Positions 45,032-57,193 of a DNA stretch of 64,000 bases are shown piece after piece. The stretch is from positions 7,750,001-7,814,000 of the forward strand of contig NZ_CP017157.1 in the NCBI RefSeq assembly GCF_001729485.1, in the 5' to 3' direction. Both the position numbers and the translations under genes were made by a program. Source of the stretch: Streptomyces lydicus (lineage in GTDB: Bacteria; Actinomycetota; Actinomycetes; Streptomycetales; Streptomycetaceae). Every line of letters starts with the position of its first letter. Within the stretch, counting starts at the first letter, position 1. Under the pieces are notes generated by a model. The model was given only the letters and a program-made list of their open reading frames with translations. It was not told the DNA's origin and did no database searches.

Positions 45032-48000
45032 GTGGAGACCTTGAGTTCCGACTCAGGGGCACGCACAGCCTTCGCGGAACGGCTCGCGCTCCTGTACAAG
45101 GAGGCCGGCAACCCTCCCCTCAAGAAGGTGGCCGACGCGGTCGTCCGGCTGCAGCGGGTCGACGAACGAGGGCGGCCCGTACGGGTGTCCGTGCAGCGCA
45201 TCAGCGACTGGCGACGGGCCAAGAACGTGCCCGCGCAGTTCCCCGCCCTGGCGGCGGTGCTGCACATCCTGATCCCCCAGGCCCGGCGCGCGCGGCCCAC
45301 TCCGGTGTCCACGGGCCTGTACGACCTGGCGCAGTGGCAGCGGCTGTGGGAGCGAGCGGTCGCCGACCCGGTCGGTGACCGCGTCCCGGCATCCGCGGAG
45401 GAGGAACGTCCGCCGGGCGAGGCCGCGCCCGTCTCCGGGGTGTGCCCGTACCGGGGGCTGGCTTCGTACCGTCAGCAGGACGCCCAGTGGTTCTTCGGCC
45501 GGGAGCGCAGCACGGACGCCCTCGTCGCCCAGCTCCGCGCGGCGGAGAGGACCGGCGGCCTGGTCATGCTCGTGGGCGCCTCGGGTGCCGGAAAGTCCTC
45601 GCTGCTGAACGCCGGCCTGGTACCCGCGCTGCGGAACGGCGGGGAGAGGGAGGTCCTGCAGCTCGTACCGGGAGGCGATCCGCTGGGGGAACTGACCCGG
45701 CGGATCCCCGGTCTCGCCCCCGTCCTCGCCGACGCGCGGGAGTCGGCGGCGAAGGAGTCCGGTACGCGGCACTTCACGCACGCGGTGCGGGAGGCCGTCA
45801 CGGCGTGGGCCGAGCACCGGGCGCCCCGCGCGGACCGGCCGGTCGTGATCGTCGATCAGTTCGAGGAGGCGTTCACCCTCTGCTCCGACGAGACGGCCCG
45901 GCGCACGTTCATCCAGCTCCTGCACGCCGCGTGCACCCCCGCCGGCCCGGGTGCCCCGGCCCCGGTGCTCGTCATCCTCGGCATACGCGCCGACTTCTAC
46001 GAGCCGTGCCTCGGGTATCCCGAACTGGCCGCCGCGCTGCAGCACCGGCACATGGTGCTCGGGCCGCTGACGACCATGGAGCTGCGGGAAGCGGTGACCG
46101 GGCCGGCCAAGGCCGTGGGTCTGGAGCTCGAACCGGGGCTCGCGGAGCTGATCGTCCGGGAAGTGAGTGCCGACGGCCCCGGCGGGACGCATGACTCGGG
46201 GGTGCTGCCGCTCCTCTCCCACGCCCTGCTCGCCACCTGGCAGCGGCGGAAGGCGGGCCGGCTGACGCTGGCCGGCTACCGCGCGGCGGGCGGCATCCAG
46301 GGAGCGGTCGCGGCGACCGCCGAGCGGGCCTGGTCCGGTCTCGACCCGACAGCCCGTACGGCCGCACGGCTGCTCCTCCTCAGGTTGGTACGGCTGGGCG
46401 AGGACACCCAGGCCACCCGGAGGCGGGGGACCCGGCGCCAGTTGGCGGACGAGTCGACGGATCCGCACAAGACGGAGGAATCGCTCGAAGCGCTGGTGCA
46501 CGCCCGGCTGGTGACACTCGACGCGGAAGCGGTGGAGATCACCCATGAGGCGCTGCTGCACGCCTGGCCGCGCCTGCGCGACTGGATCGACGAGGACCGC
46601 AACGGCAATCTGCTGCGCCAGCGGCTGGAGGAGGACGGCAGGGCCTGGGAGGGCTCGGGCCGCGACACGTCGCTGCTCTACCGGGGCTCGCGGCTGGAAC
46701 AGGCCCGCAACTGGGCGCAGTCCGCCGGTGACACCTTCCTGACCCGCAGCGCGGTGGAGTTCCTGGCGGCCTCGGTCCGGCTCCGCAAGCGCACCGTCCT
46801 GCTCAGCCGGGGTGCGGTGTCCGCGCTGGTCGTCCTGGCGATGCTGGCCGTCGGCGCGGCGGTCGTCGCGTGGCAGCAGCGCAACGACGCGGTGTTCGAG
46901 CAGGTGGTGGCCGAGGCCGACCGGGTCCAGTACACCGACCCCTCGCTCTCCGCCCAGCTGGACCTGGCGGCACATGAGCTGCGGCCGGACGACGCGGCCG
47001 TCCACAACCGGCTGGTCTCGATCGTGAACGCGCCGCTGGCCACCCCGCTGCTCGGGCACACCGGCGCCGTCTACCTCACCTCGTTCAGCCCCGACGGGAG
47101 GTTCCTGGCCACCGCCAGCTACGACCGGACGGTGCGGCTGTGGGACGTGCGGAACCGTGCGCACCCGAAGCCGCTGGGCAAGCCGCTCTCCGGGAACACG
47201 AGCTGGGTGAGCAGCGCGGTGTTCAGCCCCGACGGCCGGACCCTCGCCAGCGCCGGGGACGACGGCACCATCCGGCTGTGGGACGTACGGGATCCCGGCC
47301 GTCCCGAGCCGCTCGGCGCGCCGCTGACCGGTCATGCCGGCACGATCTATCTGATCGCCTTCAGCCCGGACGGCCGGACCCTGGCCTCGGCCGGCGAGGA
47401 TCACACCGTCCGTCTGTGGGACCTGAGCAAGCGGAGCCGGCCGACGGCGCTCCGCGCCCTGACCGGCCACACCGCCGCCGTGCGCTCGGTGGCGTTCAGC
47501 CCCGACGGCCGCGTGCTGGCAGCCGGGGGCGACGACCACACGATCAGGCTGTGGAACACGGCCGATCCGCGTCGGCCGAAGCCGCTCGACGCGGTGCTGA
47601 GAGGCCACACGGACACCGTGCACTCCGTGGCCTTCAGCCCCGACGGCCGGACGCTCGCCAGCGGCAGCGCGGACGACACCATCCGGCTCTGGGACGTCAC
47701 CGACCCGGGCCACGCCGCCGGGCTGGGCGCGCCGCTCACCGGCCACACCGGTCCCGTGTGGTCGGTGGCCTTCAGCCCCAACGGCCGTACGCTCGCCGCC
47801 GGCAGCGCGGACAGCACCGCGAGCCTGTGGAATGTCAGCGACCCGGCCTTCCCCTCGCAGGTCGGCGAGCCGCTCGCGGGAAGCAGCGGCGAGATGTACG
47901 CGGTCAGCTTCAGCCCGGACGGCCGCACCCTCGCCACCGGCAGCGGCGACAGCAAGGCCCGCCTGTGGTCGGTACCGACGGCGGACATGGTCGGCCGCAG

Positions 48001-49021
48001 TGGAGCGTTCCGCCCGGACGGGCGGGTGCTCGCCACGGCGGCGGGCGACGGGCGGATCCGGCTGTGGGACGTGCGGCGCCCCGGCCGGCCCGTCACGCTG
48101 GGCAGGCCCTTCATGGAAGCGGACGGCGGCCAGCGATCGCTCGTCTTCTCCCCCGACGGCCACACCCTCGCCGTACTGAACGGCAAGGCGAAGCTCTCCC
48201 TGTGGAACGTGACCGACCCGGCCCGTCCGGTCCTGGCCGGGCCACCCCTGGCCCTGCGCACCCGCTTCGCGGGCACGCACGCGCTGGCCTACAGCCCGGA
48301 CGGACGGACCCTGGCCACCGTCTACGGCGACCACACCATCCAGCTGTGGAACGTCTCCGACCCCGCCCGTGCCGTCCCGCTCGGCAAGCCGCTCTCCCGG
48401 CACCGGGGCTACATCAACGCCCTCGTCTTCAGCCCGGACGGGAACACCCTCGCCAGCGGCAGCGCGGACGGCACCGTCCGGCTCTGGGACATCACCGACC
48501 CGCGCCGGACCACGCCGCTCGGCGACCCCCTCAGGGGGCATGTCGCCCCCGTCAACGCGCTCGCCTACAGCCCGGACGGCCGTACGCTGGCCAGCGGCAG
48601 CGACGACGACACGGTCCGGCTGTGGGACGTCACCGATCCCCTCGACGCGACCGAGCTGAGCCGGCCCCTGACCGGTCACACCGAGGCGGTGGTGTCGCTC
48701 ACGTTCAGCCAGGACGGCCGCACCCTGGCGAGCGGCGGCAACGACAACACGGTCCGCCTGTGGAACGTGGCCGACCCGTCCGAGGCCGCCCCGATCGGAC
48801 GGTCGATGAGTCCCAACGCCAAGACCGGCAACTTCCTGTCGTTCAGTCCCAACAGCCACCTGCTCGGGGTCTCCAGCGGCGCCGACACCGTCCGGCTGTG
48901 GAACCTGGACACGGATGACGCCATCCGCCGCATCTGTTCGACCACGCGGGGTGTTCTGACGCCGGAAAAGTGGCACGAGTATCTGCCGCATCTCTCGTAC
49001 GCACCTCCGTGCGGGGATTAA
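45032..49021 (+). CDS. STAND-class NTPase (nSTAND1-like) with helix-turn-helix and 14 WD40 repeats
   Basis: 1329 residues. The N-terminal ~110 residues are a DNA-binding-like helical domain (VSVQRISDWRRAKNVPAQFP). CPYRGLASYRQQDAQWFFGR opens the NTPase, with Walker A GASGAGKSSLLNAG (~183) and Walker B PVVIVDQFEEAFTLC (~270), then a winged-helix/helical region. A transmembrane helix lies near 590-613, followed by 14 WD40 repeats (675-1320) ending in RLWDV-type motifs, enough for two seven-bladed propellers. Such proteins are signal-activated switches in bacterial conflict and development. The start is GTG 45032; TTG 45041 is possible. Followed by an 18-bp terminator. Confidence 0.92.
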   Translation: METLSSDSGARTAFAERLALLYKEAGNPPLKKVADAVVRLQRVDERGRPVRVSVQRISDWRRAKNVPAQFPALAAVLHILIPQARRARPTPVSTGLYDLAQWQRLWERAVADPVGDRVPASAEEERPPGEAAPVSGVCPYRGLASYRQQDAQWFFGRERSTDALVAQLRAAERTGGLVMLVGASGAGKSSLLNAGLVPALRNGGEREVLQLVPGGDPLGELTRRIPGLAPVLADARESAAKESGTRHFTHAVREAVTAWAEHRAPRADRPVVIVDQFEEAFTLCSDETARRTFIQLLHAACTPAGPGAPAPVLVILGIRADFYEPCLGYPELAAALQHRHMVLGPLTTMELREAVTGPAKAVGLELEPGLAELIVREVSADGPGGTHDSGVLPLLSHALLATWQRRKAGRLTLAGYRAAGGIQGAVAATAERAWSGLDPTARTAARLLLLRLVRLGEDTQATRRRGTRRQLADESTDPHKTEESLEALVHARLVTLDAEAVEITHEALLHAWPRLRDWIDEDRNGNLLRQRLEEDGRAWEGSGRDTSLLYRGSRLEQARNWAQSAGDTFLTRSAVEFLAASVRLRKRTVLLSRGAVSALVVLAMLAVGAAVVAWQQRNDAVFEQVVAEADRVQYTDPSLSAQLDLAAHELRPDDAAVHNRLVSIVNAPLATPLLGHTGAVYLTSFSPDGRFLATASYDRTVRLWDVRNRAHPKPLGKPLSGNTSWVSSAVFSPDGRTLASAGDDGTIRLWDVRDPGRPEPLGAPLTGHAGTIYLIAFSPDGRTLASAGEDHTVRLWDLSKRSRPTALRALTGHTAAVRSVAFSPDGRVLAAGGDDHTIRLWNTADPRRPKPLDAVLRGHTDTVHSVAFSPDGRTLASGSADDTIRLWDVTDPGHAAGLGAPLTGHTGPVWSVAFSPNGRTLAAGSADSTASLWNVSDPAFPSQVGEPLAGSSGEMYAVSFSPDGRTLATGSGDSKARLWSVPTADMVGRSGAFRPDGRVLATAAGDGRIRLWDVRRPGRPVTLGRPFMEADGGQRSLVFSPDGHTLAVLNGKAKLSLWNVTDPARPVLAGPPLALRTRFAGTHALAYSPDGRTLATVYGDHTIQLWNVSDPARAVPLGKPLSRHRGYINALVFSPDGNTLASGSADGTVRLWDITDPRRTTPLGDPLRGHVAPVNALAYSPDGRTLASGSDDDTVRLWDVTDPLDATELSRPLTGHTEAVVSLTFSQDGRTLASGGNDNTVRLWNVADPSEAAPIGRSMSPNAKTGNFLSFSPNSHLLGVSSGADTVRLWNLDTDDAIRRICSTTRGVLTPEKWHEYLPHLSYAPPCGD

Positions 49022-51666: not shown

Positions 51667-52116
51667 ATGCAGACGATCTGGCTCAGCGGTGCCGAGTGGT
51701 GCGCCGTGCTCCGCATCGGGCTGGGCCTGTGGTGGCTGGAGAGCTGGCGCCACAAGGACAAGAAGACCTGGTTCGCCGGTGGCGGCATCGCCTGGGCGGC
51801 GGGCATCGCGGACAAGCACCGGTGGCGGGTGGTCCGCACGGGCTTCGACCGGCTGGTGAAGCCCCGCCCCCGGCTGATGGCGTACCTCGTCGCCTACGCG
51901 GAGCTGGCGCTCGGTCTCGGTCTCGTCCTCGGCCTGCTGTCCCCGATAGCCCTGGTCGCGGGCGCGGTGCTCAATCTGGTCTACCTGGTGCTGATGATCC
52001 ACGACTGGGCGGAGCAGGGGCAGAACCTGATGATGGCGTTGATCTCGCTCGCGGCCCTGGGCGCCATGAGCTGGCAGAGCTGGTCGCTCGACGGGGCCCT
52101 GGGGCTCTTCCGGTAG
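51667..52116 (+). CDS. DoxX-like membrane protein
   Basis: 149 residues from ATG 51667, with GGGGG upstream. Four hydrophobic helices with the DoxX/TQO small-subunit pattern: RIGLGLWWLESWRHKDKKTW, then AYLVAYAELALGLGLVLGLL and GAVLNLVYLVLMIHDWAEQG. It is possibly a quinone-linked membrane redox component, but DoxX proteins are functionally diverse. Divergent from, and likely co-regulated with, the amidohydrolase via the intervening palindrome. It ends 18 bp from the convergent caspase gene. Confidence 0.85.
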   Translation: MQTIWLSGAEWCAVLRIGLGLWWLESWRHKDKKTWFAGGGIAWAAGIADKHRWRVVRTGFDRLVKPRPRLMAYLVAYAELALGLGLVLGLLSPIALVAGAVLNLVYLVLMIHDWAEQGQNLMMALISLAALGAMSWQSWSLDGALGLFR

Positions 52117-52134
52117 CCCGCGAGCCGTCGGGCG

Positions 52135-53265
52135 TCAGGTGAGGCTCGCCTCGTGGTCCGGGGGCCGGGGGTGCGGCAGAGCCGTGCGCCAGTGGCGGAG
52201 GCTCGCCCGGGCGGCGGCCAGCGCGGGGTCGTCCGGCGGGGCCAGCGGCTGCCAGTCGGTGACGGTCCGCTCCAGGAGGGCGCAGGCGGTGTACGGGTCG
52301 CCGGCCTCGCCGGTGGCGGAGGCGTGGACGTGGCGGAGGCGGAGGGTGTCGGGGTCGACGGGGCCGAGGTGCGCGGCGGCGTCGCGGGCGACCGCCTCGA
52401 ACAGCCAGGCCGCCTGGGCGAGGCGCCTGGGGCGGCCGGCCAGGCCCAGGGCCTTCACCCGGTCCGCGAAACGGGCCCGGGCCAGCAGCCCCTGGCGGGT
52501 GTGCGCGGTGCCGTGGGCCGGGTTGCGGAACAGGGCAAGGTCGCCGGTGGCGTTGAAGGCGCGTTGCAGGGGGTCGGGGAGGCGGGCGGCCGGCAGGGTG
52601 ACCGCCAGGTGCCGGTAGAGCGTGGTGAGGTCGAGGTGTTCAGGTCCGTCCGGGACGCCCTCGGTGAGCAGGCGGAGCAGGGCGGTGGTGAAGCCGGTGC
52701 GGGTGTGGTCCTCGGGGGTGAAGGCCCGCTTCCCGCGGCCGGCGGCGACCAGCAGGTGGATGTCGGACGCGTCCGGCGCGTCCAGGGCCAGCCCGGCGAA
52801 GCAGCAGTCGAGCACGGCGATCCGGTGTTCGGCGCGTACCTGCCGCATGGCCTGGAAGACGGCCGTGACCGGCAGTGCGGTGCGTTCGGTGCCCCGGCCG
52901 TCGTCCACCGAGCCGGGCAGCGCCAGGCACAGCCGCTTGTCCGCGCCGCGCAGCCCGTGGCCGGCGAAGTAGAAGAGCAGCACATCGAGGGGTTCGCCGG
53001 TGGACGCGGGCAGCAGCCGGAAGACGTCGGCCGGGGTCTGCGGGTCGACGCGGCGGTGGACCGCGGCGGGGTCGAAGCCGCCCAGCGGGCCGGTCAGCGC
53101 GTCGGCGAGCGCCGCGACGCTGCCGGCGGCCTGCGGGAGCGGCGGCAGGGTGCTGGGCACGACATGGGTGGCGGTGCCCACCAGGACGGCGGCCGACCGC
53201 CGCGGCGAGGGGACCAGCGGCGGCCAGGGCGCCGGGGAGAGGGCCGGTGGCTCAGCTGCCGTCAC
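52135..53265 (-). CDS. Caspase-like peptidase (C14 family), predicted conflict effector
   Basis: 376 residues. The caspase-like domain spans residues ~22-250: AAVLVGTATH (first strand), LLFYFAGHGLRG with catalytic His103, and IAVLDCCFAG with the nucleophile at Cys155 (the second of the pair by alignment to DxCxSG). The C-terminal ~120 residues are helical (RFADRVKALGLAGRPRRLAQ), probably a repeat-type partner or sensor region. It overlaps the EACC1 gene by 14 bp, a pairing known from predicted NTP-regulated conflict systems in which the peptidase executes cell death or cleavage. It is the last gene of a four-gene operon. Confidence 0.9.
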   Translation of the reverse strand: MTAAEPPALSPAPWPPLVPSPRRSAAVLVGTATHVVPSTLPPLPQAAGSVAALADALTGPLGGFDPAAVHRRVDPQTPADVFRLLPASTGEPLDVLLFYFAGHGLRGADKRLCLALPGSVDDGRGTERTALPVTAVFQAMRQVRAEHRIAVLDCCFAGLALDAPDASDIHLLVAAGRGKRAFTPEDHTRTGFTTALLRLLTEGVPDGPEHLDLTTLYRHLAVTLPAARLPDPLQRAFNATGDLALFRNPAHGTAHTRQGLLARARFADRVKALGLAGRPRRLAQAAWLFEAVARDAAAHLGPVDPDTLRLRHVHASATGEAGDPYTACALLERTVTDWQPLAPPDDPALAAARASLRHWRTALPHPRPPDHEASLT

Positions 53266-53632
53266 CGGAACCCGGCTCCAGGAACCGGCGCAGCTGCTGT
53301 TCCACGGCGGCGGCGTCCTCGGGGCTGCCCGCGGACAGTTCGAGGGCGGTGCCGTCCGGGCGGGTCACCTTGAAGCTGATCCGCCGGGACCTGGCCCGCT
53401 GCGCGAGCCACACCGCCACGGCGCTGACCACCGCCTCCAGCACCGGGCCGACCGCGCCCAGCACCTCCGCGGCGTCCGCGAGCCCGCCCTGGTGGCCCGG
53501 TGCGGGCGGGACCATGCGCAGCCGGGCCGAGCCGGTGAGGTCCTCGTCGTCGTTCAGCCACTCGGCGAGCGACTGCGCCAGGCCGTCGGCGTCGTCCGCC
53601 GGTCCGTCGAAGGCGAAGGTGAGGGTGGTCAT
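53252..53632 (-). CDS. Effector-associated constant component EACC1
   Basis: 126 residues from ATG 53632. The pattern of an acidic N-terminal strand/helix (MTTLTFAFDGPADDADGL), a hydrophobic helix (VGPVLEAVVSAVAVWLAQRA) and a C-terminal beta segment (ISFKVTRPDGTALELSAGSP) fits EACC1, a small component found next to effectors such as caspases or trypsins in ternary conflict systems. Its role is thought to be coupling the effector to a sensor. It overlaps the caspase gene by 14 bp. Confidence 0.8.
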   Translation of the reverse strand: MTTLTFAFDGPADDADGLAQSLAEWLNDDEDLTGSARLRMVPPAPGHQGGLADAAEVLGAVGPVLEAVVSAVAVWLAQRARSRRISFKVTRPDGTALELSAGSPEDAAAVEQQLRRFLEPGSGDGS

Positions 53633-53669
53633 GACGGTGCGGTGCTCCGGGGGTCGGGGGCGGACGGGG

Positions 53670-54821
53670 TCAGAACCGGGGGGCGTACGGGTCCCGCCCG
53701 CCGGCGGGGGCGGTGCTCCCGCCGGGGGCGGGCCCGGCCCCCCGTCGTGCCGTGCTGAACAGCGGGGGGCGGCCGGGGATCTCGTACGGGAAGCGGAAGG
53801 CGGCCGACGCCTGCGGTACGTCGACCAGGTCGGCGAGGAGCTGCTCCCAGCCGCCGAGCGGCTGCGGCACCTCCTGCCGGTAGGTGGTGTCGAGCCAGGT
53901 GTACTGCATCCCGGAGAGGCCGGCCCAGGCGGCCGCCCTCTCGTGCGGCGGCACCGCGCGGGCGACCGCGCCGCCGGGTGCGGCGCCGGCCGGGGCGACG
54001 GTGGCGGCGAGCAGCTCGGCGAGCGGGAGCGGGGCCGCCGGCTCGGCGGCGAGCGAGATCCGCAGCCGGTAGGTGCGGCCCGCGCAGGCGGCCAGCGCCT
54101 CCCCGTAGCGGGCCGCGGCGTGCACGGCGAACGGGTCGGGCGCGATGTACTGGGTGAACACCGGGCTGGGCCGTCCCGGTTGGGCGAGCCTGCCGTACTC
54201 CTGGGTCAGGTAGCGGAGGTAGCCGAGCAGCTCCTGCGGGGGCGCGTAGGGCTCCAGGCAGACGCCGACCACCGTGCGGGCGCGCTCACGGGCCAGCGCC
54301 TCCCACACCGGCTCCCAGCTGACGGCCTCCCCGCCGAGCGGGGCGAAGGCCACACCGAGCGGGAAGTCGGTGTCGCGGCGCTGCAGCCACGCCCAGGAGA
54401 GGCGCTTGCGGACCTCGGCCAGGCCGGCCGGAGTCCCGGCGAACGGGACCAGTGCGGCGTGCAGTTCGGCGGCGTCCTCCACCGGAGCCGCCCGGACGTG
54501 CCGGGGGGTGTCGGCCAGCGCGTCGCGCAGGGCGAGCGCGGCGGCGGACGCCGTCCGGGCGTCCGCTCCGTGTGTCCGGCACAGCAGGGTGCAGGTCACC
54601 GTGGTGTCCGGGGCGGTGGCATAGCGCAGCTCGAAGGCCCGGCCGTCCGGCTGCCACTGCCGGGAGAGCCAGACCTGTTCGAGCGTGGCGGCCTCCAGGC
54701 GCCGCTGGTCTTCGGGCAGGCCGAGGTGGGCGCCGTTCTCGGACATCGCCGGTTCCGGTTCCAGCCGGAGCCCGGCCCAGGCCCATGCTCCCGAGGGCCC
54801 GGTGGTGGACAGCACGCTCAT
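53670..54821 (-). CDS. Unknown protein in the caspase-EACC1 operon
   Basis: 383 residues, from ATG 54821, overlapping the upstream membrane-protein stop by 4 bp. No family that I can name. An alpha/beta composition is visible: LEQVWLSRQWQPDGRAFELR, TCTLLCRTHGADARTASAAA and VSWEPVWEALARERARTVVG. The middle part vaguely recalls the N-terminal region of VirB4/HerA-type proteins, but there is no P-loop. The C-terminus is Pro/Gly-rich (about 355-383). Its operon position makes it a candidate sensor or adaptor for the caspase module. Confidence 0.75.
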   Translation of the reverse strand: MSVLSTTGPSGAWAWAGLRLEPEPAMSENGAHLGLPEDQRRLEAATLEQVWLSRQWQPDGRAFELRYATAPDTTVTCTLLCRTHGADARTASAAALALRDALADTPRHVRAAPVEDAAELHAALVPFAGTPAGLAEVRKRLSWAWLQRRDTDFPLGVAFAPLGGEAVSWEPVWEALARERARTVVGVCLEPYAPPQELLGYLRYLTQEYGRLAQPGRPSPVFTQYIAPDPFAVHAAARYGEALAACAGRTYRLRISLAAEPAAPLPLAELLAATVAPAGAAPGGAVARAVPPHERAAAWAGLSGMQYTWLDTTYRQEVPQPLGGWEQLLADLVDVPQASAAFRFPYEIPGRPPLFSTARRGAGPAPGGSTAPAGGRDPYAPRF

Positions 54822-55729
54822 CCCGCGGGGTCGGCCTCACCGGCGGGCCGCGGCTGCGCCTCGGGGGCGGGCGGCGGCACCTTGGTGGGGGCGGGCGGCA
54901 CGACGGGCGGGACGGCGGGCGGCGGCGGGGTGGCGCCCGCGGTGGGCGCGGCGGCCGGTGCGGTCGCGACCGGGGTCCCGTCGACGGCGACCATCAGGCC
55001 CTCGCGGCAGGCGAGGTGGACGGCCTCCCGCATGGCCCGGGCGCCCTCGCTGCGCAGCAGCTGGTGCTCGATGCCGTTCTCGCCCTTGAGCGCGCGGAAG
55101 AAGTCCCCGATGAACTGGCCCATCAGCTCGGTGCCGCGGCGCGAACGCCACATCATCCAGCCGAGGTAGAGGCTGCTGCCGTAGTTGAAGACGGAGACGT
55201 AGGCGGTGTACGGCGGGTCGTTGAGGGTGACGCGGGTGCCCAGGCCCTTGGGGGCGAGGGGGTAGCGGCGGGAGCTGAGCGTGTGGACGATCGTGGCGTA
55301 GACCGCGGGTGCCCGGTCGGGACGGTCGGCCAGCAACACCCGCCACTCGGCGACCGGCTCGGGCAGCCGGCTCGCGAGCAGGACGATCCAGAACACGGCG
55401 AAGCCGGCGAAGGAGGCGAACACCAGCCAACCGGATCCGGAACTTCCGCCGGAGCTGCCGGCGCCGGACCCGCCGTAGCCGAAGGGGTCCGACGAGGACT
55501 GCTCGCCCACGCTCGCGATCAGCGAGATGACGCCGATGAAGCCGGGGATCGCGGAGACGACGAGCGACGCGAGGGTGGCCCGCAGCCACAGCCGGAAGAT
55601 CGTCCTTCCGTTGACGCTCTCGTTGAGGGCCATTTCGATGGGCTCGTGGCGCAGCGTCTTGTCCAGGTAGGCGGCGTTTCCGTCGCCACCGCGCCAGCCC
55701 GGGAGCGGCGTGCCGCTACCAGTGATCAT
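54818..55729 (-). CDS. Two-helix membrane protein, first gene of the caspase-EACC1 operon
   Basis: About 303 residues from ATG 55729, with GGGGG upstream. Transmembrane helices lie near residues 48-68 (TLASLVVSAIPGFIGVISLI) and 97-117 (WLVFASFAGFAVFWIVLLAS), with a Gly/Ser-rich loop between them. A cytoplasmic domain (RTVTL-less core YPLAPKGLGTRVTLNDPPYT ... GENGIEHQLLRSEGARAMRE) and a Pro/Ala-rich tail (250-303) follow. I do not recognise the family. It could anchor or trigger the downstream components at the membrane. Confidence 0.75.
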   Translation of the reverse strand: MITGSGTPLPGWRGGDGNAAYLDKTLRHEPIEMALNESVNGRTIFRLWLRATLASLVVSAIPGFIGVISLIASVGEQSSSDPFGYGGSGAGSSGGSSGSGWLVFASFAGFAVFWIVLLASRLPEPVAEWRVLLADRPDRAPAVYATIVHTLSSRRYPLAPKGLGTRVTLNDPPYTAYVSVFNYGSSLYLGWMMWRSRRGTELMGQFIGDFFRALKGENGIEHQLLRSEGARAMREAVHLACREGLMVAVDGTPVATAPAAAPTAGATPPPPAVPPVVPPAPTKVPPPAPEAQPRPAGEADPAG

Positions 55730-55993
55730 TTTCCCCCGATCGGCAGCTGTTGAGTTGGGTACCGGTACCAGAGCTCCCACTGTGGCACAGCTCACCTTCC
55801 GGTGCGGGGGAACTCCGCACTCTCACCCCGGGAGTGGGGCCCTTGGGCGGACATGCCCGTCTTCTGCCGGGCGACCAGGGCGGCCAACGCCCGTGCGACC
55901 AGGTTGACTTCTCCGTAAAACATGATGAGTTCCGGTTTCTCCTGGGCTCTTGTGGCTGCTGTGGTGACAGTTGCGGATCCCTCAGGAGGAGCC

Positions 55994-57193
55994 ATGGCAT
56001 CCGTGCCGGCGGTGTCGTTGATCGTGCCGACGTTCAACGAGGCGGGGAACATCGATGAGTTGCTGGACGGTGTGTGCGCGGCGCTTCCGGAGGAATGGGA
56101 CGTCGAGGTGCTGTTCGTCGACGACTCGACCGACGACACCCCGGAGGTGATCGAGAAGGCGGCCGTGCGGTGCCCGATGCGGGTGTCGGTGCTGCACCGG
56201 GAGGTGCCCGAAGGGGGCCTCGGCGGGGCGGTGGTGGCCGGGATCGCGCAGACGAGCGCGCCGTGGATCGTGGTGATGGACGCCGATCTGCAGCACCCGC
56301 CGCGGCTGCTGCCGGAGCTGGTGGAGGCGGGGGAACGGGCCGGGGCGGAGCTGGTGGTCGCCAGCAGGTACGCGGACGGCGGCAGCCGGGGCGGCCTGGA
56401 CGGCGGGTACCGGATGGCGGTGTCGGGGGTGTCGACCGCCGTGACCAAGGCGCTGTTCCCGCGCCTGCTGCGCGGCGTCTCCGACCCGATGAGCGGCTTC
56501 TTCGCCATCCGCCGGGAGGCGATCGAGCGCGCCGGGCGCGAGGACGGGGCCGGGCAGGACGGCGGGCTGCGGCCGCTGGGGTACAAGATCCTGCTGGAGC
56601 TCGCGGTGCGCTGCCGGCCGCGCGGGGTGGCGGAGGTGCCCTACGAGTTCGGGGAGCGGTTCGCCGGGGAGTCGAAGTCGACGGTGCGCGAGGGGCTGCG
56701 GTTCCTGCGGCACCTCGCGGAACTGCGCAGCAGCGACAAGCGGGCCCGGATGGTGGCCTTCGGGCTGATCGGGGTCTCGGGGTTCGTGCCGAACCTGCTG
56801 GCGCTGTGGGCGCTGACCGGCGCCACGTCGCTGCACTACGCGGTGGCGGAGGTACTGGCGAACCAGCTGGGGGTGCTGTGGAACTTCGCCCTGCTGGACT
56901 TCCTGGTCTACCGCAGCGCGAAGCAGGGGCACTGGGCGGGCCGGCTGCTGGGGTTCGCGGCGCTCAGCAACGCGGACCTGCTGGCGCGGATCCCGCTGAT
57001 GATGCTGCTGGTGGAGCAGGCCGGCATCGGGCCGGTGCCGGCGACCGTGATCAGCCTGGTGGTGGTGTTCCTCGTGCGGTTCCTGCTCGTCGACACGCTG
57101 ATCTACCGGCGCAGGGGCGCCGCGGCACGCAAGGAGCAGGCGCCGGCGCGCACCGCCGCGGCGCACGAAGCACGAGGTGAGCGCGCTGCTTAG
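55994..57193 (+). CDS. Polyprenyl-phosphate sugar synthase-like GT2 with GtrA domain
   Basis: About 399 residues from ATG 55994 behind AGGAGG. The N-terminal GT2 domain is Dpm1-like: SLIVPTFNEAGNIDELLDGV, VLFVDDSTDDTPEV, and VVMDADLQHPPRLL carrying the DxD nucleotide-sugar site. The C-terminal 130 residues are four GtrA-type membrane helices (VAFGLIGVSGFVPNLLALWA). Such fusions transfer a sugar from GDP- or UDP-sugar to polyprenyl phosphate. Next to two GT39 enzymes and mppJ, it most likely supplies polyprenyl-phosphomannose for peptide mannosylation; that is an inference from context. Confidence 0.88.
   Translation: MASVPAVSLIVPTFNEAGNIDELLDGVCAALPEEWDVEVLFVDDSTDDTPEVIEKAAVRCPMRVSVLHREVPEGGLGGAVVAGIAQTSAPWIVVMDADLQHPPRLLPELVEAGERAGAELVVASRYADGGSRGGLDGGYRMAVSGVSTAVTKALFPRLLRGVSDPMSGFFAIRREAIERAGREDGAGQDGGLRPLGYKILLELAVRCRPRGVAEVPYEFGERFAGESKSTVREGLRFLRHLAELRSSDKRARMVAFGLIGVSGFVPNLLALWALTGATSLHYAVAEVLANQLGVLWNFALLDFLVYRSAKQGHWAGRLLGFAALSNADLLARIPLMMLLVEQAGIGPVPATVISLVVVFLVRFLLVDTLIYRRRGAAARKEQAPARTAAAHEARGERAA

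What the first reader, a model, noticed from the sequence alone, without database searches (positions are those of the whole stretch)
52135..55729. Four-gene caspase-EACC1 operon with two unrecognised partners
A tightly packed minus-strand operon encodes a two-helix membrane protein, an unrecognised 383-residue protein, EACC1 and a caspase-like peptidase with intact His103 and Cys155. The first two genes overlap by 4 bp and the last two by 14 bp. EACC1-caspase pairs are known from predicted NTP-dependent conflict systems, usually with a separate NTPase. No NTPase lies in this operon, and the two upstream proteins match nothing I know, so they may be a membrane trigger and an adaptor of a variant suicide or defence system. 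The STAND-WD40 protein 3 kb away (45032-49021) could be the missing switch, but the pairing is speculative.
Basis: partly seen in the sequence, partly recalled or inferred. Interest (0 to 1): 0.8.

Follow-up and report, generated by a model that had tools for sequence, protein, structure and literature searches.

The report
Membrane module controlling a bacterial caspase
A rare four-gene bacterial unit joins a known suicide-type caspase pair to a previously unnamed two-protein membrane module, and relatives of that module carry other outputs instead (a TIR domain, or a motor ATPase near toxin genes), so it looks like a reusable switch.

Summary
The operon is real: A (303 aa, two hydrophobic segments), B (383 aa), EACC1 (PF19953) and an EACC1-type caspase (NF047832, His103/Cys155), with 4- and 14-bp overlaps, all with dN below dS. 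EACC1-caspase is a published two-gene conflict system (Kaur 2020, 'System 4') in which an NTPase is optional, so nothing is missing here. What is unusual is A-B. They match no Pfam, NCBIfam or PADLOC model, yet form a tightly linked pair: A beside B in 31 of 31 loci with the upstream DNA held, and in the same 10 genomes of two near-identical class samples. In 34 actinobacterial loci A-B has three outputs: separate EACC1+caspase (13), a TIR domain fused to B (7), or a HerA-like ATPase fused to B (14), with toxin-type domains in 5 of 11 scanned next genes. The A-B caspases form one clade apart from 20 other caspases of this type and carry no recognised C-terminal effector. Best reading: A-B is a membrane-bound, effector-agnostic control module that here gates a caspase for cell suicide or defence. 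Linkage and output exchange are shown; activation and antiphage function are inferred. The STAND-WD40 pairing is not supported. New variant of a known kind.

The parts
54818..55729 (-). A: two-helix membrane protein, 303 aa; predicted N-in/C-in hairpin, ~130-residue conserved cytosolic region, proline-rich tail
   Evidence: hydropathy; loop between helices lacks K/R in 23 of 25 rows; no Pfam/NCBIfam/PADLOC hit; family alignment A4
53670..54821 (-). B: 383-aa protein without membrane segment; its relatives are the N-terminal part of B-TIR and B-HerA fusion proteins
54818..54821 (-). 4-bp overlap of A end and B start
   Evidence: A/B spacing in relatives
53252..53632 (-). EACC1 (PF19953), 126 aa with one hydrophobic segment (residues 57-75)
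52135..53265 (-). Caspase, EACC1-associated type (NF047832), 376 aa; caspase domain ~24-226, then ~150 residues without a recognised domain
53252..53265 (-). 14-bp overlap of EACC1 and caspase
52957..52959 (-). codon of His103 of the caspase
   Evidence: coordinates worked out from the gene start
52801..52803 (-). codon of Cys155 of the caspase (second Cys of the DCC motif; its catalytic role is recalled from caspase relatives)

Best explanation
The operon encodes a membrane-tethered cell-death or defence switch. A and B form a constant control module: A is a helical hairpin in the membrane with its bulk in the cytosol, and B is a cytosolic partner that holds the output. In this lineage the output is the separate EACC1-caspase pair; in relatives it is a TIR domain or a HerA-like motor fused to B. 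A disturbance at the membrane, or an infection signal there, is proposed to change the A-B complex. B then releases or clusters EACC1-caspase, and the protease cleaves targets and stops or kills the cell. Shown: the four-gene unit, tight A-B linkage, output exchange on B, intact caspase dyad, one caspase lineage, purifying selection. Inferred: A-B binding, B contacting EACC1 or caspase, the trigger, proteolytic suicide and benefit against phage.
For: Four-gene order in 11 of 11 caspase-type loci with A in view. A directly upstream of B in 31 of 31 loci whose upstream DNA is held. A and B in the same 10 genomes of near-identical class samples (A: 10 of 388; B: 10 of 394). B homology by single-sequence search to HerA-fused forms (G060 7.6e-52, G077 4.1e-38) and a TIR-fused form (G104 3.4e-66); A likewise (L016 5.3e-41, L018 1.8e-31, L014 3.3e-65). 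TIR_2 in 6 of 6 B-TIR proteins scanned. Beside the L014 A-B-TIR genes lies a divergent gene for an EAD1-TIR protein (EAD1 4.9e-15, TIR_2 3e-21), EAD1 being a part of the published conflict network. Walker A in 14 of 14 B-HerA proteins. 12 A-B caspases form one clade (99/100) against 20 others, with His/Cys kept. dN/dS 0 to 0.42 in all four genes.
Against: No experiment. 14 of 34 loci are HerA-type and some look like toxin deployment rather than suicide, so A-B need not be a sensor. The loop of A outside the membrane is only 3-37 residues in the 23 regular rows, so it is a poor ectodomain receptor. No fold for B: AlphaFold mean pLDDT was 43.5. The system is rare, and no relative was found in the held plasmids or viral contigs. 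No PADLOC model covers A or B. The B tree does not by itself unite the caspase-type loci, though one clade is not rejected. Caspase and B trees disagree on L013, which joins the window group in the B tree (100/99) but L030/L037 in the caspase tree (98/91).
Confidence: 0.58

Rival explanations
1. A-B is the base of a HerA-driven protein or DNA translocation machine. The caspase and TIR versions are derivatives that lost the motor and deploy an effector at the membrane against a partner or neighbouring cell, not a sensor of infection.
For: B-HerA loci are the largest class (14 of 34). In 7 of 14 the next gene has an acidic N-terminal half (at least 0.32 Asp+Glu), and 5 of 11 next genes scanned have a toxin-type domain: TNT, WHH, or calpain C2 three times; L018 adds a SUKH gene. 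The motor resembles HerA, CedD, mad8 and VirB4-type ATPases.
Against: No HerA match in the caspase or TIR loci or among the window's gene calls; toxin and immunity genes were not systematically scanned there. EACC1-caspase is described as a membrane-associated system of the own cell, and L014 lies beside an EAD1-TIR gene. The link of B to VirB4 N-terminal domains is at noise level and A showed no link to PrgI.
Confidence: 0.2
2. Ordinary EACC1-caspase system. A and B are passengers or a housekeeping membrane pair that happened to fuse or neighbour different effectors.
For: Only 1 of 70 over-cut-off caspases of this type in 61 Streptomyces genomes sits beside A-B, so the pair exists without them.
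Against: Strict four-gene order, a separate caspase clade, conservation of A and B, and recurrent fusion of B to conflict-type domains.
Confidence: 0.12
3. The STAND-WD40 protein at 45032-49021 is the NTPase switch of this operon.
For: nSTAND1 (2.1e-125) lies 3 kb away; nSTAND1 is noted in some EACC1 systems (PMC8195603 passage).
Against: Other strand, three intervening genes; its NTPase is found again only beside the S. lydicus copy (L011, refetched as L031), where the neighbourhood is shared.
Confidence: 0.04

Closest known systems
EACC1-caspase two-gene conflict system (System 4, Kaur et al. 2020, PMC7159879)
   Same: EACC1 with a hydrophobic segment 5' of an EACC1-type caspase; proposed membrane sensing and caspase activation
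   Different: Two further conserved genes (A, B) upstream; caspase has no recognised variable C-terminal effector and is uniform in length (328-387 aa in 13 loci against 347-930 in 20 others by my gene calls); separate caspase clade
TIR-domain immune effectors (TIR_2, PF13676; PADLOC TIR families)
   Same: Relatives of B carry a C-terminal TIR_2 domain
   Different: The TIR sits on B beside A, with no recognised NTPase, cyclase or Argonaute domain in the proteins scanned; the window operon has no TIR
HerA/FtsK-superfamily ATPases (HerA, CedD, mad8) and polymorphic toxins with immunity genes
   Same: B-HerA relatives have the motor, and some have toxin-type and immunity-type genes
   Different: The window operon has no HerA match; the A-B module matches no known HerA partner in the libraries searched

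Membership tests
EACC1-caspase System 4 | EACC1 domain encoded 5' of the caspase | tested here: met
   PF19953 4.7e-22; gene order
EACC1-caspase System 4 | EACC1 has one membrane-type helix | tested here: met
   hydrophobic segment 57-75, mean KD 1.93; hydropathy only
EACC1-caspase System 4 | EACC1-associated caspase with His/Cys dyad | tested here: met
   NF047832 178 bits against cut-off 140; His103/Cys155
EACC1-caspase System 4 | Variable effector domain fused C-terminal to the caspase (frequent in the description) | tested here: not met
   no domain after the caspase in Pfam, NCBIfam or PADLOC for the window protein; short C-terminus in the other A-B caspases
EACC1-caspase System 4 | Two-gene organisation | tested here: not met
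   four-gene unit in 11 of 11 loci with A in view; filed as a variant
HerA-driven polymorphic toxin loci | HerA-type ATPase and toxin/immunity genes | tested here: not met
   no HerA match among the window's gene calls; toxin genes not systematically scanned in the window; present in relatives
VirB4/PrgI-type secretion parts | B homologous to VirB4 N-terminal domain | tested here: inconclusive
   collinear hhalign at probability under 1%; best of 13 scored 11.3 bits against 11.8 for a reversed decoy
VirB4/PrgI-type secretion parts | A homologous to PrgI | tested here: inconclusive
   hhalign probability 0.2%, but against a rough 10-row alignment with one wrong row and several late starts
Antiphage defence systems | Protects cells from phage | not testable with these tools
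   only PADLOC 'caspase' at 9.6e-6 for the caspase, none for A or B

The most novel reading that the evidence does not exclude
A-B is a new, effector-agnostic membrane control module that links cell-suicide effectors (caspase, TIR) with a HerA-powered toxin-deployment machine. One membrane gate would have been exapted between killing neighbours and killing the own cell, by changing only what is attached to B.
Probability: 0.35. Interest if true: 0.8.

Novelty: new variant of a known kind. Interest (0 to 1): 0.62.

Why it matters
EACC1-type caspases are common in Streptomyces (36 of 61 genomes hold one over the cut-off), but how they are triggered is, to my knowledge, not established. This variant supplies two constant partners to test for trigger and gate. 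The same module carrying TIR or HerA outputs means that a result on one (what A senses, how B transmits) would transfer to the others, and it points to an evolutionary bridge between inter-bacterial toxin systems and bacterial programmed cell death.

Tried and rejected
STAND-WD40 as missing switch: rejected, not conserved beside the operon.

Partial search hits: most genomes 'with a match', and 8 of 18, have only hits of about 20-24 bits to model positions within 32-165 (mostly 50-126); I dropped them: 50 of 61, 57 of 74 and 8 of 18 matching genomes. Strong matches remain in 11 of 392 (genus), 17 of 293 (order) and 10 of 394 (class) genomes, draws overlapping; G504 and G793 among them match in two pieces. 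One fetched partial example (L048) lies in a gene that reads to me like an aldehyde dehydrogenase, although it gave a local 5.8e-6 hit to the B profile. L010, L019 and L049 were also dropped as chance hits. A phylum sample of 149 gave only the own genome plus two partial hits of 21-22 bits.

B as VirB4 N-terminal domain: attractive by eye and collinear in hhalign, but a control with 604 forward and 604 reversed sequences put it at noise level: the 13 VirB4 rows scored from 11.3 down to -2.0 bits. A as PrgI: no signal in a rough test. A or B in PDB: nothing significant. Viral contigs and plasmids: none. Empty-site analysis: the DoxX-like neighbour is found in 12 of 25 genomes with a strong match but in differing places, so I did not pursue it. 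Promoter and terminator scan of 51900-56100: none found.

Caspase tree: of 20 regions fetched, L065 and L068 gave no caspase gene call and were dropped; L020 and L021 were added. 19 of the 20 comparison caspases stand beside an EACC1 match; L070 does not. The trees hold 27 (B) and 25 (A) rows, not all 34 loci.

Structure: one AlphaFold job for B (4 sequences) gave mean pLDDT 43.5, so no fold search was made. The job for A was never accepted.

TIR catalytic residue: L042, L043 and L047 have SEWAEFE where L014 has GAVNRH and L044-L046 have AGDL(Q/H)RQ. By recall the last E of the first motif matches the catalytic glutamate of NADase TIRs, so some of these TIRs may be inactive; not settled.

Literature: 'EACC1' occurs in 13 held papers, of which two concern this domain by title and passages. 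A-B did not appear in the passages and section 33 seen of PMC7159879, nor in passages of PMC8195603 and PMC3482391; searches (listings only) gave no other lead. Supplements could not be read, so A or B may be listed there.

Changes made on re-check: acidic next genes are 7 of 14, not most; toxin-type domains 5 of 11; TIR_2 6 of 6; the L013 disagreement, the L070 exception and the EAD1-TIR neighbour of L014 were added.
Full report
Observation. The four minus-strand genes are present exactly as described. A is 303 aa, B 383 aa, EACC1 126 aa and the caspase 376 aa; A/B overlap by 4 bp, EACC1/caspase by 14 bp, and B and EACC1 are 37 bp apart. EACC1 matches PF19953 at 4.7e-22; the caspase matches NF047832 at 178 bits against a cut-off of 140. 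A and B match nothing in Pfam, NCBIfam or PADLOC at E up to 1. When the 27 B and 25 A rows are scanned against Pfam one by one, only isolated weak matches appear, best E 0.005. dN/dS of window against L011 is 0.29 (A), 0.24 (B), 0 (EACC1) and 0.25 (caspase); against L012 it is 0.42, 0.40, 0.34 and 0.42 (ratios). The window is G000:C1:7750001-7814000 of an 8.2-Mb genome; the nearest of the three named relatives found is Streptomyces lydicus (95% identity in B).

Known part. Kaur et al. 2020 (PMC7159879; [quoted passage not shown] An NTPase is therefore optional, not missing. In this genome EACC1 occurs three times, and NF047832 matches five times, four over the cut-off. Among 61 Streptomyces genomes (G000-G060), 36 carry over-cut-off caspases, 70 listed matches in all. 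Of these genomes only G000 and G060 show a full-length B, and the B of G060 is HerA-type. So 1 of 70 such caspases is in the A-B context: the four-gene form is rare.

The A-B pair. Profile searches found strong B matches in 11 of 392 genus genomes, 17 of 293 order genomes and 10 of 394 class genomes, with overlapping draws; many further hits of about 20-24 bits were dropped. A lies directly upstream of B in all 31 where the upstream DNA is held; in L042 A was found and by frame inspection, its tail lying in another frame. L013, L017 and L029 start at a contig end.

Three outputs. (1) Caspase class, 13 loci: window, L011, L012, L013, L015, L023, L029, L030, L037-L041. The order is A-B-EACC1-caspase in 11 of 11 with A in view, with B-EACC1-caspase in the other two. 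(2) TIR class, 7 loci: L014, L042-L047. B carries a C-terminal TIR: TIR_2 in 6 of 6 scanned (L014 9.1e-21, L042 3.1e-24, L043 5.9e-21, L044 1.8e-15, L045 7.3e-14, L046 1.4e-14). L047 is judged from the alignment only because its B is interrupted. The TIR of L042 matches Toll-like receptor TIRs in the PDB at 6.5e-12; that of L014 matches none at E 0.1. Beside the A-B-TIR genes of L014, on the other strand, lies a gene for an EAD1-TIR protein; EADs are parts of the published conflict network. (3) HerA class, 14 loci: L016-L018, L022, L024-L028, L033-L036, L050. B (about 385 residues) is followed in the same protein by a P-loop ATPase with Walker A in 14 of 14. Pfam DUF87 is over its cut-off in one of three scanned; matches to HerA, CedD and mad8 models, below NCBIfam's cut-offs where given, and weak matches to HerA-type PDB chains (a DNA helicase, 9x1l, at 7e-4; HerA entries 0.047-0.39) agree. 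The next gene has an acidic N-terminal half in 7 of 14. Of 11 next genes scanned, 5 have a toxin-type domain: TNT (L017), WHH (L018) and calpain C2 (L026, L034, L035); 6 have none (L028 only a sub-cut-off Bactofilin match). L018 adds a SUKH immunity-type gene.

History. In trees of B (27 rows) and of A (25 rows) the HerA class is one side of a well-supported branch (100/100 and 99/98). Caspase and TIR classes are mixed by poorly resolved deep forks; one clade for each is not rejected in the B tree (p-AU 0.141 and 0.184). In a tree of the caspase domain the 12 A-B-linked caspases form one clade (99/100) against 20 other caspases of this type, 19 of them beside an EACC1 match. Inner groups (L029/L038-L040; L030/L037; window/L012/L023) recur in the B tree, but L013 changes place (with the window group in B, with L030/L037 in the caspase). 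So the caspase pair appears to have joined A-B once and then largely travelled with it. These caspases are 328-387 aa long, the window's without any recognised C-terminal domain, against 347-930 aa in the 20 others (my gene calls). Presence is patchy, as for a horizontally moved cassette (inference).

Anatomy. In A the loop between the two hydrophobic segments has no Lys or Arg in 23 of 25 rows, while the N-terminal part has 3-7 and the following 120 residues 13-22 in these 23 rows (the exceptions are L045, whose start is called too late, and L047 with one). By the positive-inside rule (recalled) both ends are cytosolic, and the outside loop is as short as three residues. A is thus more plausibly a membrane-state sensor or anchor than a ligand receptor (inference). 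B has no membrane segment. Its AlphaFold model is too poor to use (mean pLDDT 43.5).

Mechanism, marked. Shown: gene unit, pair linkage, output exchange at the end of B, intact dyad, selection. Inferred from output exchange: B is the part to which the output is attached, so in this lineage EACC1-caspase should dock on B. Inferred from the families: activated caspase cleaves cellular or effector proteins and stops or kills the cell; antiphage benefit is likely but untested. The main rival is that A-B is basically a translocation base for HerA-driven toxins.

Verdict. It was wrong about the missing NTPase and, as far as neighbourhoods show, about the STAND protein. The larger finding lies outside its coordinates: a shared two-protein membrane module with caspase, TIR or HerA outputs.

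Noticed in passing
L016-L018, L022, L024-L028, L033-L036, L050 (A and B-HerA genes with the gene after them): Candidate toxin-deployment loci: A, then B fused to a HerA-like ATPase, then in 7 of 14 a protein with an acidic N-terminal half; 5 of 11 next genes scanned have a toxin-type domain (TNT, WHH, calpain C2 three times), and some loci add an immunity-type gene.
   Followed up: partly
L014:7582-8385: Gene for an EAD1-TIR protein (PF19955 4.9e-15, TIR_2 3e-21) divergent from the A-B-TIR genes; it ties the TIR form to the published effector-associated-domain network.
   Followed up: partly
L042:9084-9488, L043:9137-9550, L047:2084-2488: A small conserved 134-137 aa gene near the B-TIR gene in three loci of one genus; no Pfam or NCBIfam match for the L042 copy.
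   Followed up: no
window 52223-52311 (+): ARAGORN calls a tRNA-Gly antisense inside the conserved caspase gene; probably a false positive.
   Followed up: no
window 45032-49021 (+): nSTAND1 NTPase with WD40 repeats; separate from the operon, and its NTPase is shared only with the S. lydicus neighbourhood among the gene calls of the fetched A-B loci.
   Followed up: partly
L021:7088-9277: Another EACC1-caspase pair of the own genome whose caspase carries a C-terminal FGE-sulfatase domain (PF03781 4.5e-26), fitting the published System 4 pattern of a variable C-terminus.
   Followed up: partly
L026:12316-12591: 91-aa gene after the calpain-type gene of an A/B-HerA locus matches DUF6406 (2.8e-19); possibly its immunity gene.
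   Followed up: no
L047 and L050: Broken copies: B interrupted in the B-TIR locus L047, and shortened A and B-HerA in L050, beside intact relatives elsewhere.
   Followed up: no
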